Source of the DNA: Nitrospira defluvii
GTDB taxonomy: Bacteria; Nitrospirota; Nitrospiria; Nitrospirales; Nitrospiraceae
NCBI GenBank assembly: GCA_000196815.1
Contig: FP929003.1
Location: 2,813,501-2,877,500, forward strand
Direction of reading: 5' to 3'
Length of the DNA: 64,000 nucleotides
Shown piece by piece: positions 55,801-63,561 of the stretch (the stretch's first letter is position 1; each line of letters begins with the position of its first letter). Below the pieces are notes generated by a model. It had not been told where the DNA came from and searched no databases. It saw only the letters and a program-made list of their open reading frames with translations. A program made the translations under genes and the position numbers.

Positions 55801-56043
55801 TCACTCAAAGAGTTGCCGGGAGAGCTGCTCGCGAGTCAGTTCGAAGTGTGCCGAAACATCGGTGAGGATTGCGGAGAGGGTTCCGATGCGAAGAGGACTG
55901 TGCTGCGGGATCGTAATATGATGTTCGCCATGTTCGGTAGTCGTCAGCCGGAGATGGCTACCGGTTTGTCGCGTGATCGAATACCCTAACTTCCGAAGAA
56001 TGTGGGCGAGATCGCCTCCCGACACATCTCGAGGAAGCCTCAT
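55801..56043 (-). CDS. hicA: HicA family toxin
   Basis: An 80-residue HicA/YcfA mRNA-interferase fold: RDVSGGDLAHILRKLGYSITRQTGSH, ending with the catalytic His in the GSHLRL segment, then HHITIPQHSPLRIGTLSAIL. It cleaves mRNA when not bound by HicB. The first base overlaps the hicB stop (ATGA at 56040-56043), so the pair is co-translated, with the antitoxin gene first. Confidence 0.9.
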   Translation of the reverse strand: MRLPRDVSGGDLAHILRKLGYSITRQTGSHLRLTTTEHGEHHITIPQHSPLRIGTLSAILTDVSAHFELTREQLSRQLFE

Positions 56044-56246
56044 ACGGCGATGACTTCCTCCCGAACATGATGGAGACGAACCACCTTAGGAGCGGCCCCT
56101 TCCTCAAAGTGACAGCGGACCGCATCGCGAACTTTTGTTGGAAGTTCCGCCAGTGTATCGGCCTCCGTGAAAATCGACGGCCCAAGGGATCGAGCAACGA
56201 AACCACCCTCTGGTGCCTCCTCAACTATGAAGATTAGCTCTGTCAT
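56040..56246 (-). CDS. hicB: HicB-like antitoxin, short form
   Basis: A 68-residue protein. It starts LIFIVEEAPEGGFVARSLGPSI, followed by FTEADTLAELPTKVRDAVRC, matching the short HicB domain (partial RNase H fold) without a DNA-binding extension. It neutralises the HicA toxin encoded directly after it, with ATGA overlap. Because there is no helix-turn-helix, autorepression may need another factor. Confidence 0.88.
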   Translation of the reverse strand: MTELIFIVEEAPEGGFVARSLGPSIFTEADTLAELPTKVRDAVRCHFEEGAAPKVVRLHHVREEVIAV

Positions 56247-58011: not shown

Positions 58012-58711
58012 CCCGTCTCAAGCCCCGTGTGGCTAACTCACTAAGTTTAGGCAATCCGCATGAGAACCTGGTCCGACCATGTCAGCCCGCAGAACAGGCC
58101 GCTCCCGTTCGTGAACCATACGCCATGATCGTGATCGTTTCAATGCGTTCCGAGTGCGGATTCAGTGCGACACTTATTCGGACAGAATCAGAGCACCCCA
58201 GCGATGCCGGTTGCAATCTCACATGGAGATCCATCGCCTGGTCACACAACGGGCACGCAAGAAGGGGAAGCACACCGTCAACTTGGAGTCGTTGCTGAAG
58301 GAGCAACGACTCGCGATAGATCCGCATCGTCTATCTGATCATCGACCAAGAGATCCTGGTCGAAGTCGTCGCCATTCGAACACGCGATGACCTCGCGTTC
58401 TATCAGAAAGCACGCAAACGGTTCACCCGCCGGAACCGAGAGAATGACTATTCCTCACTGCGTGAAAGTATGAGTACCTCGTGGCGCCGTGCGCGCATTG
58501 ACTCGTTCGACGCGGGCGCCGATAATGCGCCGCATCGAGGCCGACAGGGTGGATAACAGTCGCCTGTCCCAGACCGCCGCCAGTCGACGGTCGCGGATTT
58601 CAAGGAGTACTCAGTGCGGGGCCTCGACCACCCGCTCGAGTCGATTGTATTCTACGACGTTCATGTTTCTATGCCTCCGGTTCTGGGCCGGAACCTTCGT
58701 TCGAGGATCGT
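58012..58711. other. 700-base stretch with gene remnants only
   Basis: No intact gene is clear. A minus-strand frame at 58082-58327 encodes 81 residues with a CPLC pair (ACPLCDQAMDLHVRLQ) and could be a small zinc protein, but its start context is poor. A plus-strand RelE/ParE-like remnant occupies 58320-58556. The last 150 bases lead into the propeller peptidase gene; its frame stays open upstream without a start codon. Confidence 0.4.
58320..58556 (+). pseudogene. RelE/ParE-like toxin remnant
   Basis: The plus-strand frame reads IRIVYLIIDQEILVEVVAIR followed by TRDDLAFYQKARKRF, resembling the C-terminal strand and helix of RelE/ParE toxins (xYRVLYxIDDExxVVxVxxIRHR). It is preceded by an in-frame TAG directly before ATC at 58320, and no start or upstream toxin sequence is readable in frame, though CGCGAT just upstream would continue in another frame. 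It is therefore a fragment or decayed gene. Confidence 0.35.
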
Positions 58712-60508
58712 ATGATTAGCGGACCCGGTGCGGCCATGTTGGACAGCAAGCTCTTCGTCTCACGCCTGAACGGCGACTTCCGCGACCTGTACGAGCGATG
58801 GTGGGATGGAGACGAGTGGATCTGGATCAACCACGGCAAACCTGCCGGCACTGCCGTCACCGGTACGCCCGGCGCGGCGATGCTGGATGAAAAACTGTTT
58901 GTCGTCGTGGCCGACGGCAGTCTGTGGGAACGGCATTGGCGAAGCGACCTCGGACGCTGGGCCTGGAACAGCCATGGGCGACCCGGCAATCGTCCCATTG
59001 TGCACGGTCCCGGCGCTGAAATGTTGAATGAGAAATTCTTCGTCGTCACGGACGACGGGCACCTGTGGGAACGCCATTGGAGGAACGACCTGGGGCGTTG
59101 GGTGTGGAACGACCATGGCACGCCGCCGGCCACCACCGTCGCCACGGCCCCCGGTGCCGCCATGATGGACAGTAAGCTGTTTGTCGGCACCGCGAACGGA
59201 CGGCTCTACGAACGTGTCTGGAACGGGACTCAATGGGTGTGGGTCGATCATGGATTGCCGGTCGGCACGTCCGTGGCCACGGCGCCTGGAGCGGCGATGA
59301 TGAACAGTAAACTCTTCGTCGGCACTGCGGACGGACGATTGTTCGAGCGAGTGTGGAACGGGAGTCAGTGGGTCTGGGTGGACCACGGCGCGCCGCCTGG
59401 AACGACCGTCGCCACGGCCCCCGGCGCGGCCATGATGGACAGTAAGCTGTTTGTAGGCACCGGCAATGGGCACCTGTATGAACGGCTGTGGAACGGCAGC
59501 CGGTGGGTTTGGGTGGATCACGATACCCCACCCGGCACCACCGTCAACGCCGCCCCCGGCGCCGCCATGATGGACAGTAAGCTGTTCGTATCCACGGCCA
59601 GCGGACGGCTCTACGAGCGCACCTGGGATGGGACTCGCTGGACCTGGGTGAACCACGGCACAGCCCTCCACGATCGCGCCGAGCATGTGGTGGGCCGCCC
59701 TGGATCGGATCCCAAACTCTCGATCCTGATCATGGGGGACGGCTATGCCGAGGCCGACATGCCTGCCTATCGGTCGCAGGTTACCAGCCAGGTTCTGGTG
59801 GCGTTAAGCCTGGATCAGTTGCTGTTGCATCAAGGCGCGTTCCGTGTCGTTCGGGTCGACTTGGTGTCGGTGGAGTCCGGTGTTCGAGAGCGCCGCTACA
59901 GTACGAGAGGCACCATCACCTCGGATGTGTTCAAATCCTCCCGGCTCGGCCTCATTCCCAACGACAGCTGGGATCGTTGCTGGTTCGATCTGTCGACGTA
60001 TACGGACGCGCGCATCGAAAAACTGCGCCTGCGGTTCGCTCCCGAGGCCGACCATGTCATCGTACTCGTCAAGTCGGACACCTGGGGCGGGTGCAGCTCG
60101 GTCGGCCCCGGCACTGGTTATTTTACGGAAGGCAGCGGCATGACGACCGTGGCCCATGAGCTGGGACACAACCTGTTTCGCCTGGGCGATGAATACCTCA
60201 GCGACAGCGCCAGGGAAACGTACACCGGCGTGAGCAACTACCCGAATACCTCGGAGGCGCCGTCGGATTGGACCGCACTCAAATGGTTCGACCTCGTCCA
60301 CCCCGATACCCCGTTACCGACGAATGCAGCCCGTCCACCCGCCGGGTGGAATCGCCGCACCAGCGTGGGCGCGTTTGAAGGGGCCGGGGGCTCCTATGCA
60401 ACCGGGCTCTTCCGACCGGTGCTGGAATGCCGGATGAACCAAAACAATCCGCCCTGGTGCCCGGTCTGCGGGCGAAAGATTCTTTCCGATCTGGAGGTGT
60501 TCGAATGA
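58712..60508 (+). CDS. Seven-repeat PLL-like beta-propeller fused to M64-type metallopeptidase
   Basis: A 598-residue two-part protein. Residues 1-325 are seven repeats of about 46 residues of the form PGAAMMDSKLFVGT, then LYERVWNG and WVWVDHG, as in PLL/DUF346-type seven-bladed propellers that can bind sugars. Residues 330-598 are a peptidase of the M64 (IgA protease-like) type: ILIMGDGYAEADMPAYR, then VAHELGHNLFRLGDEY near 480 with the HExxH zinc site, and a C-terminal Cys motif CRMNQNNPPWCPVCGR. No signal peptide is visible although such enzymes are normally secreted. The start ATG has AGGA five bases upstream. It is coupled by ATGA overlap to the DUF1508 gene. Confidence 0.82.
   Translation: MISGPGAAMLDSKLFVSRLNGDFRDLYERWWDGDEWIWINHGKPAGTAVTGTPGAAMLDEKLFVVVADGSLWERHWRSDLGRWAWNSHGRPGNRPIVHGPGAEMLNEKFFVVTDDGHLWERHWRNDLGRWVWNDHGTPPATTVATAPGAAMMDSKLFVGTANGRLYERVWNGTQWVWVDHGLPVGTSVATAPGAAMMNSKLFVGTADGRLFERVWNGSQWVWVDHGAPPGTTVATAPGAAMMDSKLFVGTGNGHLYERLWNGSRWVWVDHDTPPGTTVNAAPGAAMMDSKLFVSTASGRLYERTWDGTRWTWVNHGTALHDRAEHVVGRPGSDPKLSILIMGDGYAEADMPAYRSQVTSQVLVALSLDQLLLHQGAFRVVRVDLVSVESGVRERRYSTRGTITSDVFKSSRLGLIPNDSWDRCWFDLSTYTDARIEKLRLRFAPEADHVIVLVKSDTWGGCSSVGPGTGYFTEGSGMTTVAHELGHNLFRLGDEYLSDSARETYTGVSNYPNTSEAPSDWTALKWFDLVHPDTPLPTNAARPPAGWNRRTSVGAFEGAGGSYATGLFRPVLECRMNQNNPPWCPVCGRKILSDLEVFE
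58721..59690 (+). repeat. Seven tandem coding repeats of about 138 bases
   Basis: Seven units encode the propeller blades. Units four to seven are the most alike at the DNA level: CATGATGGACAGTAAGCTGT recurs at about 59161, 59430 and 59568. The first three units have diverged. The pattern fits blade duplication by recombination, so blade number may vary among strains. Confidence 0.7.
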
Positions 60509-61215
60509 GCCCACACCCGCAGTGGCGCGGACAACGGCGCATCCGGGTCGCGCTCGAATTTACGGCGCGAGGAGTCCGCCTCGCCGGCATGAAACCGCTG
60601 GAAGGGCCGGCCGTCCAACGGCCTGTCCTGGAGGGAAGTTATCTCGCTGAGGTCACGGTCGGTGGAGTGACGGCGATCGTGCATTCGTTCAACGATCCGC
60701 GATCGGTTCGCGGGATTTCACGGCCGCAGCAGCCGGGGCACAGCTTTGCTCGCCAGGATACGGCCATCGTCTATGTCGATGTGCCGATCGCCCACGAGGG
60801 TCCCCTTGGGGACATCTCGATCAGCGTGACCGATCTCTCGAAGCTACGCCAGCGGCCGGTTGATATGGCCGAGGTGCAAGCGCTGCTCGGCCGTGCGCCC
60901 AAGGGAATTCGCGCGGCGGGACGCATTACCAGTGAGCAACTGCGGGCGCATCCCGACTGGGGAGCGTTGGGGCTCCCCGGTGTTCCGTCGGCCCCACGCC
61001 TTGGCTTCTATGAGATTTACCGTGATCGAGAAAAAACGTTCCGCTGGCGCCTGCATCACAGCGATGGACGAATTGTAGCGGAGTGCGCCAAGCCGTACCC
61101 CAGCCGTGCAGCGTGCGAAGCAGACCTTCGCTGGATGAAAGAATCGGGCTCACGAGCGCCTGTCCGATCGCTCGATATTCCCACTCCACCGGCGACCCCG
61201 AAAAAGCGGAAGTAG
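60505..61215 (+). CDS. Protein with C-terminal DUF1508 (YegP-like) domain
   Basis: A 236-residue protein beginning at the ATG that overlaps the peptidase stop. The first 140 residues look beta-rich (RIRVALEFTARGVRLAGMKP, DTAIVYVDVPIAHEGPLGDI) with no family I can name. Residues 165-215 are a DUF1508-like unit (FYEIYRDREKTFRWRLHHSD, then YPSRAACEADLRWMK). The coupling suggests a partner of the propeller peptidase, such as an inhibitor, carrier or substrate; this is inferred from arrangement only. The C-terminus is basic (TPKKRK). Confidence 0.72.
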   Translation: MSPHPQWRGQRRIRVALEFTARGVRLAGMKPLEGPAVQRPVLEGSYLAEVTVGGVTAIVHSFNDPRSVRGISRPQQPGHSFARQDTAIVYVDVPIAHEGPLGDISISVTDLSKLRQRPVDMAEVQALLGRAPKGIRAAGRITSEQLRAHPDWGALGLPGVPSAPRLGFYEIYRDREKTFRWRLHHSDGRIVAECAKPYPSRAACEADLRWMKESGSRAPVRSLDIPTPPATPKKRK

Positions 61216-62359: not shown

Positions 62360-63181
62360 ATGACCATACGAACCTTTGCTCCGCGTGTCGGCCTGCTGGT
62401 TGCGCTGAGTGCCGCACTGCTGCTGCCGGCCTCCACACCGTGGGCCGGGACGGGTGCCGTGCGGCCGGGAAGCGGCTACACCATCGCCGGCCATCCATTG
62501 GATGACCGCGACCCGCAGTACACGGTGAACGACTATCGCACCTACGTCATCGCCGGGTGCGTGCCGAAATATCTGCCGATTAAGGGGCCCGTCGGTTCCG
62601 TGTGGGTCGCCTGTAACGATCTGGATTACGCGAAGGACAAGGTAGTCGAAAGCCGGTTCGTATCCTGCCTGGAGATGTTTCCGGGCGGCGTGCTGCAAGG
62701 GCTGTTCATCAAAGAGGTGAACAACCGCACGTGGGAATCGTTCCGGTTCTCCTGCCGGGAACTGCAGGCCGACGGCACGGTCGGGTCCCGTTGGGAGAAG
62801 AGCCCGTTCCTCTTCAATTACGAAAAAGAGGGCACATTGTTCGAGACTACGGTGCCGACCAGCCGGCTCTCCATCGGCCTGTACGAGGTCTACAACAAGC
62901 TGCAACTCCGGGAGAGTCTCCTGCAAGTGGGGCTGGAACATGCCACCGCGGAGGATATCCACGAGAACGGGGTAAAAGGACAAGATCCGCAATCCATTCA
63001 GGTCAGCCCCAGGGTGCCGGATGCGTTCGGACTGGGAGGCATAGCGGGCACACACAAATGGGAATGTCCTCCGGGGATGGTGGTGACCGGCGCCGCCATC
63101 GGCCACGTGCCCGATAAGAAGGGAAAACACACCCGCCCGGTCTATCTCCTCATGGAGTGCCGGAAACTCTTTCACGGATAG
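62360..63181 (+). CDS. Secreted protein of unknown function
   Basis: A 273-residue protein with a signal peptide (VGLLVALSAALLLPASTPWA) and a mature domain with several Cys residues (IAGCVPKYLPIK, WVACNDLDYAK, RFVSCLEMF, FRFSCREL, WECPPGMVVTG, MECRKLF) that could form disulfides. The strong AAGGAGGGA ribosome site supports expression. The last 50 residues repeat a Gly/Val-rich theme seen in lectin-like folds, but I recognise no family. It stands alone on the plus strand among decayed elements. Confidence 0.75.
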   Translation: MTIRTFAPRVGLLVALSAALLLPASTPWAGTGAVRPGSGYTIAGHPLDDRDPQYTVNDYRTYVIAGCVPKYLPIKGPVGSVWVACNDLDYAKDKVVESRFVSCLEMFPGGVLQGLFIKEVNNRTWESFRFSCRELQADGTVGSRWEKSPFLFNYEKEGTLFETTVPTSRLSIGLYEVYNKLQLRESLLQVGLEHATAEDIHENGVKGQDPQSIQVSPRVPDAFGLGGIAGTHKWECPPGMVVTGAAIGHVPDKKGKHTRPVYLLMECRKLFHG

Positions 63182-63219: not shown

Positions 63220-63561
63220 TTTCTGTGCACGCCCTCCGGTCGCAGCGTTCGCCTTGAAGCGGCCTTGCAAGACATGGCCCACCCGCTCGTGACGGCGGTT
63301 AAAGGCTTGGGTATAGACGCCATTGAGCTAGCGCATGGCGGTGGAGAGATTGGCCTCGGGTGCTTCCACCAGCAGGTGAAAGTGGTTGCTCATCAGGCTG
63401 TAGGCATGCAGCACGAGATGACAGCGGGCGACGACCCGCTCCAGCACGCCCAAGAACCGCCGCCGATCCTCGTCGTCGAGGAAGATGTCTTGGCGGGCAT
63501 TGCCTCGAGCAGTAATGTGATAGAGCGCCCCGGCATATTCAAGGCGCAACGGTCGGGCCAC
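63220..63561 (-). pseudogene. REP-associated tyrosine transposase, broken
   Basis: The GTG at 63561 opens ARPLRLEYAGALYHITARGN, with YSLMSNHFHLLVEAPEANL near residue 55: the HxH nuclease site of IS200-like REP-associated (RAYT) transposases. After 77 codons an in-frame TAG replaces a Gln codon (TAMR*LNGVYTQAFNRRH), the frame then continues to VLQGRFKAN and loses similarity. The catalytic Tyr helix beyond is missing, so the gene is dead. The flank TGCACAGTTCAAGATCTG at 63582-63599 is a likely terminal motif. Confidence 0.85.

What the first reader, a model, noticed from the sequence alone, without database searches (positions are those of the whole stretch)
58712..61215. Lectin-like propeller fused to an M64-type peptidase, coupled to a DUF1508 protein
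Seven near-identical blades precede a metallopeptidase with HELGHNLFRLGDEY. I know of no described system with this exact fusion plus a coupled YegP-domain partner. It may be a sugar-guided peptidase acting on glycoproteins, with the partner as inhibitor, chaperone or substrate. The lack of a signal peptide is puzzling and suggests unusual export or a role inside the cell.
Basis: partly seen in the sequence, partly recalled or inferred. Interest (0 to 1): 0.62.

Follow-up and report, generated by a model that had tools for sequence, protein, structure and literature searches.

The report
Lectin-guided M64 peptidase, coupled partner
A nitrite-oxidising bacterium carries a gene pair for a zinc peptidase fused to a sugar-binding-type propeller and a small coupled partner; comparison suggests that M64 peptidases are often two-subunit enzymes whose active-site-capping domain is a separate gene, here moved downstream and given an extra domain.

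Summary
ORF 58712-60508 (598 aa) is a seven-bladed propeller (residues 1-318) followed by an M64 peptidase with intact catalytic and structural zinc ligands. The propeller model matches Photorhabdus PLL-type fucose lectins best (Z 29-31). The ATGA-coupled partner is 60505-61215 (236 aa); only its last ~55 residues are DUF1508. Both genes are under purifying selection. They occur together in 6 of 395 Nitrospirota genomes, all Nitrospira (the window is N. defluvii), and on one Gemmatimonadetes MAG contig.

Two results go beyond the finding. (1) Of 75 other M64 loci, 62 have a separate ~130-residue beta-domain gene directly upstream, usually overlapping the peptidase gene, and 6 have the same domain fused in front of M64. 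(2) A low-confidence model of the partner's first 140 residues ranks the N-terminal domain of Bacteroides M64 enzymes first among solved structures (DUF1508 proteins aside). So the partner is best read as a trans-acting M64 cap domain, moved downstream and fused to DUF1508. Sequence support for that last step is weak.

A PLL-type propeller was joined to M64 at least twice, in opposite orders (AU p 4e-7), both found in Nitrospira. Lack of a signal peptide is the norm in the main split-M64 clade. Sugar ligand, substrate and export route are untested.

The parts
58498..58526 (+). promoter-like hexamers (TTGACT-17-GATAAT) in the conserved ~240-bp upstream segment; consensus match only
   Evidence: segment conserved in congeners
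58703..58714 (+). GAGG ribosome-binding-like site and ATG start of the peptidase gene
   Evidence: conservation sharpens at the ATG
58712..60508 (+). PLL-type propeller + M64 metallopeptidase, 598 aa, no signal peptide
58712..59665 (+). seven-bladed PLL-lectin-like beta-propeller, residues 1-318
   Evidence: fold search (PLL4 8q82 Z 31.4, rmsd 2.2 A, 284 aligned)
59708..60496 (+). M64 peptidase domain, residues 333-595
   Evidence: PF09471; PDB 3p1v/4df9
60155..60196 (+). HELGHNLFRLGDEY: zinc ligands H482, H486, D493, general base E483; second-zinc ligand E494
   Evidence: aligned to BF3526 H311/H315/D322/E312/E323 (PMC12402451)
60428..60469 (+). second (structural) zinc site cysteines C573, C583, C586
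   Evidence: aligned to BF3526 C398/C409/C412; conserved in A4
60493..60508 (+). GGAGG then ATGA stop/start overlap coupling the two genes
60505..61215 (+). partner protein, 236 aa
60505..60924 (+). partner N-domain, residues ~1-140: proposed trans-acting M64 N-terminal (cap) beta-sandwich
   Evidence: VIA-align ranks 2-4 = M64 NTDs, Z 5.2-5.3; hhalign p 0.007-0.019; model pLDDT 53
61000..61170 (+). DUF1508/YegP-type domain, residues ~166-222
   Evidence: PF07411; 3bid/6q2z

Best explanation
The pair encodes a two-component M64 zinc peptidase. The large protein carries a PLL-type seven-bladed propeller that probably tethers it to a glycan (inferred) and an M64 catalytic domain with a complete zinc site. 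The small protein supplies in trans the beta-sandwich cap that other M64 enzymes carry as a fused N-terminal domain or as a separate upstream gene. In Bacteroides BF3526 that cap lines the active site and limits how much substrate fits, so here the partner probably caps, stabilises or regulates the peptidase; its C-terminal DUF1508 domain is an add-on of unknown role. Shown here: anatomy, intact zinc ligands, co-occurrence, purifying selection, PLL fold by model, and the widespread split/fused cap gene next to M64. Inferred: that the partner's N-domain is that cap, complex formation, catalysis, sugar binding, location.
For: M64: PF09471 E 3.5e-23, PDB hits, ligands aligned to those of BF3526. 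Propeller: ranks 1-19 by VIA-align are PLL/PHL/BP39L lectins, Z 28-31, 18-21% identity against 6-12% for other propellers; Foldseek agrees. Module rule: 62 of 75 other M64 loci have the cap gene directly upstream (commonest spacing a 4-nt overlap) and 6 have it fused to M64; fused and split versions are homologous (hhalign 2.6e-16). Compartments generally match: in Flavobacteriia the cap is a lipoprotein and M64 has a Sec signal, elsewhere usually neither has one. Partner as cap: its model over residues 3-140 picks the NTDs of 9qdi, 3p1v and 4df9 at ranks 2-4 of 991 chains, Z 5.2-5.3, next unrelated chain 4.1; strand order fits BF3526's NTD; window-type loci have no upstream cap gene but always the partner. 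Pair kept at 69%/48% identity in a Gemmatimonadetes MAG.
Against: The partner model is poor (pLDDT 53, pTM 0.40); Z about 5 can be a common arrangement. Profile comparison is weak: p 0.007-0.019, matched by 4 of 100 column shuffles. The split-cap profile itself links only weakly to Pfam M64_N of Bacteroides (p ~0.015). The partner lies downstream whereas caps lie upstream. It lacks an obvious counterpart of the cap glutamate that binds substrate in BF3526 (inspection). The RSL-type fucose-binding arginine is not evident in the blades, so sugar binding is uncertain.
Confidence: 0.58

Rival explanations
1. Toxin-immunity or peptidase-inhibitor pair: the partner binds and blocks the peptidase in the producing cell; the peptidase is delivered by a non-classical route and the propeller binds target surfaces.
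For: Small downstream gene with ATGA overlap; neither protein has a signal peptide; in G021 the peptidase gene has 11 frame-shifting indels while the partner and two tested neighbour genes have none, as expected if the partner outlives a toxin. A 'Peptidase M64' T6SS effector candidate is listed for Salmonella (PMC11669294).
Against: No secretion or delivery genes seen beside the pair in the listed neighbourhood. The small gene next to other M64s is a cap-domain gene that also exists fused to M64, which fits a subunit better than immunity. A cap can also inhibit, so the two ideas overlap. The G021 indels could be assembly error.
Confidence: 0.2
2. The partner is an unrelated chaperone, adaptor or substrate; the beta-sandwich resemblance is a common arrangement, and the propeller has replaced the cap in this lineage.
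For: Weak sequence link and a low-confidence model; the window M64 is a long-branch lineage (2.2 changes per column), so it may have lost the cap; the propeller sits where fused caps sit.
Against: Cap domains rank above all other non-DUF1508 folds; partner gene is always adjacent and coupled.
Confidence: 0.17
3. A cytosolic housekeeping peptidase whose propeller is only a protein-protein scaffold without lectin activity (compatible with the cap-subunit reading of the partner).
For: No signal peptide; RSL-type arginine not evident in the blades.
Against: Closest folds are all PLL-type lectins; PLL lectins also lack signal peptides, yet PLL2 and PLL3 were found in the extracellular fraction (PMC12203525); PLL-type propellers were joined to M64 at least twice.
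Confidence: 0.15

Closest known systems
BF3526 / BACOVA_00663, M64 peptidases of Bacteroides (PDB 4df9, 9qdi, 3p1v)
   Same: M64 family by sequence, same catalytic and second zinc ligands; N-terminal beta-sandwich cap resembles the partner's N-domain
   Different: Cap fused in one secreted polypeptide; no propeller, no DUF1508
ThomasA, IgA protease of Thomasclavelia ramosa (M64; 9qdh, 9ekk)
   Same: M64 zinc peptidase family
   Different: Sec-secreted 137-kDa multidomain IgA-specific enzyme with another N-terminal domain; no coupled partner described
PLL/PHL seven-bladed lectins of Photorhabdus; BP39L, CV39L
   Same: Seven-bladed fold, Z 27-31; no signal peptide (reported for the Photorhabdus PLLs)
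   Different: Stand-alone lectins; 18-21% identity (CV39L 11%), ligand sites here untested
M64 with C-terminal PLL-type propeller and upstream cap gene (Cellulomonas, Microbacterium, Streptomyces, other Nitrospira)
   Same: Lectin-type propeller + M64 + coupled small gene, no signal peptide on M64
   Different: Domain order reversed, independent origin (AU p 4e-7), no DUF1508
DUF1508/YegP proteins (3bid, 2k8e, 6q2z)
   Same: The last ~55 residues of the partner
   Different: Small DUF1508-only proteins of unknown function

Membership tests
Peptidase family M64 (PF09471) | Profile match over curated cut-off | tested here: met
   82.7 bits against cut-off 26
Peptidase family M64 (PF09471) | HExxH...D zinc site and general-base Glu | tested here: met
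   H482 E483 H486 D493, aligned to BF3526
Peptidase family M64 (PF09471) | Second zinc site E/C/C/C seen in the solved M64 structures | tested here: met
   E494 C573 C583 C586
Peptidase family M64 (PF09471) | Peptidase activity | not testable with these tools
   needs assay
PLL-type seven-bladed lectin | Seven-bladed propeller built of W-motifs | tested here: met
   7 repeats, about 4 strands each, Z 31.4 to PLL4
PLL-type seven-bladed lectin | Conserved sugar-site residues (Trp pairs) and fucose/O-methyl sugar binding | tested here: inconclusive
   two or three Trp per blade kept (sequence), RSL-type Arg not evident; binding not testable
M64_N cap domain (PF16217) for the partner N-domain | Pfam PF16217 sequence match | tested here: not met
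   no match up to E 10; not filed as a PF16217 member
M64_N cap domain (PF16217) for the partner N-domain | Cap beta-sandwich fold | tested here: inconclusive
   top non-DUF1508 structural match, Z 5.2-5.3, on a model with pLDDT 53
M64_N cap domain (PF16217) for the partner N-domain | Encoded with and coupled to M64 | tested here: met
DUF1508 (PF07411) | Profile match over cut-off | tested here: met
   26.5 bits against 22; 3bid and 6q2z
Toxin-immunity (effector) pair | Linkage to a secretion system or delivery marker | tested here: inconclusive
   none obvious in the listed neighbourhood; genome not searched for secretion systems

The most novel reading that the evidence does not exclude
Most M64 peptidases outside the Bacteroides type are obligate two-subunit enzymes whose active-site cap is supplied in trans by a translationally coupled gene, on which targeting modules (PLL-type lectin before or after M64, VWA) are swapped; in Nitrospira the cap moved downstream and gained a DUF1508 domain, making a glycan-tethered peptidase whose activity is gated by a separable subunit.
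Probability: 0.45. Interest if true: 0.62.

Novelty: new variant of a known kind. Interest (0 to 1): 0.5.

Why it matters
Very few M64 enzymes have been studied biochemically (ThomasA and BF3526 in the papers read), and no study of the signal-peptide-less majority found here turned up. If they are split enzymes, single-gene expression would give incomplete protein, and the coupled gene should be co-expressed. Two independent fusions of a PLL-type propeller to M64, in opposite orders, suggest that glycan tethering of these peptidases is selected for. N. defluvii is a nitrite oxidiser known from activated sludge (own knowledge), where glycan-directed proteolysis of matrix or neighbours would be of ecological interest.

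Tried and rejected
Mis-annotated start hiding a signal peptide: rejected, conservation sharpens at ATG 58712 and no other ATG/GTG/TTG precedes it in frame. Unique fusion: rejected. Common origin of the two propeller-M64 fusions: rejected by AU test, with the caveat of a long branch. Window partner or DUF1508 near other M64s: none found by profile. Partner in viral contigs: none; in plasmids only DUF1508-region hits. Sequence-only proof that the partner is a cap domain: not reached. Foldseek alone on the partner gave no significant match (best DUF1508, E 0.08). First genome-collection scan failed for lack of a conserved stretch, repeated with closer sequences. In one search two partner rows (G023, G008) were read on the wrong strand, so their dN/dS values are void; corrected translations are. 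Literature on split M64, lectin-M64 or DUF1508 function: none found among the held papers.

Full report
What is there. The window lies in a closed 4,317,083-base genome. By size (own knowledge) and by close relatives named Nitrospira defluvii and Nitrospira sp. (97% and 94% protein identity) it is Nitrospira defluvii. ORF 58712-60508(+) encodes 598 aa. Seven repeats of 45-48 residues start at PGA[AE]M, 44-84% identical to one another, so 'near-identical' fits only blades 4-7 loosely (58-84%). Residues 333-595 are an M64 peptidase. The partner begins at ATG 60505 inside an ATGA overlap preceded by GGAGG; it is 236 aa, with DUF1508 only at residues ~168-220.

Zinc sites. The solved M64 enzyme BF3526 uses H311, H315, D322 and base E312, with a second zinc on E323, C398, C409 and C412 (PMC12402451). 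The alignment to 4df9 places window residues H482, H486, D493, E483 and E494, C573, C583, C586 at these positions. Catalysis is therefore likely; activity is untested.

Propeller. An AlphaFold2 model (pLDDT mostly 60-92 in this part) shows seven blades of about four strands. The nearest solved structures are Photorhabdus lectins PLL4, PLL5, PLL3, PLL2, PHL and PLL (Z 29-31, rmsd 2.2-2.7 A over 283-287 residues), then BP39L; other propellers follow at 6-12% identity (Foldseek one search agrees). A sequence profile weakly finds RSL-type fucose lectins (E 0.04-0.1); the Glu and Trp of their motif are kept, the Arg is not (inspection of the alignment). PLL lectins bind fucose and O-methylated sugars in sites between blades, lack a recognised signal peptide, and two were found in the extracellular fraction (PMC12203525). 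Sugar binding here is an inference.

Distribution. The partner occurs in 6 of 395 Nitrospirota genomes, all of one genus, each time next to the peptidase gene: intact in G000, G016 and G023; split over two contigs in G006; cut by a contig end in G008; frame-shifted in G021. A Gemmatimonadetes MAG contig of 3.6 kb (L051) holds the same pair at 69% and 48% identity; mis-binning cannot be excluded, but at 69% the sequence is not a copy from this Nitrospira group. dN/dS is 0.09-0.10 for the peptidase and 0.14-0.16 for the partner (correctly stranded pairs, G000 against congeners). The G021 peptidase gene has 11 frame-shifting indels against none in its partner or in two neighbour genes: a decaying gene or local assembly errors.

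The M64 module. A scan of 85,000 genomes returned 80 M64 loci. An iterated profile of the small gene upstream of several of them finds that gene directly upstream of M64 in 62 of the 75 loci outside the window's own family, most often with a 4-nt overlap, and fused in front of M64 in 6 more. Fused and split versions are homologous (hhalign 2.6e-16). In Flavobacteriia the small protein is a lipoprotein and M64 has a Sec signal; in the other phyla usually neither has one (a crude hydrophobicity check read by eye), so the two products mostly share a compartment (an apparent exception, L110, may be a start-codon question). In BF3526 the fused N-terminal beta-sandwich flanks the active site, contacts substrate through E97 and is thought to limit the non-primed subsites (PMC12402451). 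The small gene is therefore best read as a trans-acting cap. No paper describing this split was found among the held papers.

The window's partner. Its first 140 residues have no Pfam match. A weak AlphaFold2 model (pLDDT 53) has the strand order beta1-beta2-beta3-beta4-short helix-beta-beta. In VIA-align the solved M64 structures with this cap (9qdi, 3p1v, 4df9) take ranks 2-4 of 991 chains over model residues 3-140, Z 5.2-5.3, with the next unrelated chain at 4.1; the DUF1508 proteins 3bid, 2k8e, 6q2z and 2k7i match the C-terminal part. Profile comparison with the upstream caps is collinear (13-99 against 2-98) but weak (p 0.007-0.019; 4 of 100 shuffles as good). Position, coupling, absence of an upstream cap gene in this family and the structural ranking together favour a relocated cap fused to DUF1508; I put this at about 0.6-0.65.

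Two fusions. M64 with a C-terminal seven-bladed PLL-type propeller occurs in Nitrospira G001, G007, G027, L110 and L112, and in Cellulomonas, Microbacterium, Dermatophilaceae and Streptomyces, Pfam Fungal_lectin E 2.9e-7 in Cellulomonas. In the M64 tree these lie inside the 44-row split clade (support 99), the window family outside it on a long branch. Holding both propeller types together is rejected (lnL 129 lower, p-AU 4e-7). The tree is a quick one and long branches are in play.

Mechanism. Most likely: a glycan-tethered zinc peptidase whose substrate access is shaped by the partner. Alternatives are an inhibitor/immunity partner, an unrelated adaptor, or a cytosolic scaffolded peptidase. 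Export is unresolved: no signal peptide exists on either protein, and secretion systems were not searched for in the genome.

Noticed in passing
outside the window: G000:C1:2887346-2889919 (L157 10347-12920): Second, divergent M64-like protein of N. defluvii (857 aa, PF09471 E 1.2e-10), ATGA-coupled to a 1085-aa DUF6603 protein and followed by an 871-aa protein without Pfam match; a similar set in congener G001 (L158).
   Followed up: partly
L093-L128, flavobacterial M64 loci: Split M64 pairs in which the cap protein is a lipoprotein and M64 has a Sec signal; together with SP-less pairs this suggests matched compartments.
   Followed up: partly
L054, L063, L065, L077, L081, L091: SP-less M64 proteins with a C-terminal VWA domain and an upstream cap gene, including Nitrosospira.
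   Followed up: no
G021 C34:269702-271486 (L035 9703-11487): Peptidase gene with 11 frame-shifting indels while the coupled partner and two tested neighbour genes have none.
   Followed up: partly
window 55801-56246 (-): HicBA-like toxin-antitoxin gene pair, by inspection only.
   Followed up: no
window 63328-63561 (-): Fragment resembling a REP-associated tyrosine transposase, by inspection only.
   Followed up: no
window 62360-63181 (+): Protein of 273 aa with an N-terminal signal-like segment and no Pfam family over cut-off; well conserved and partly duplicated beside the pair in congener G023.
   Followed up: no
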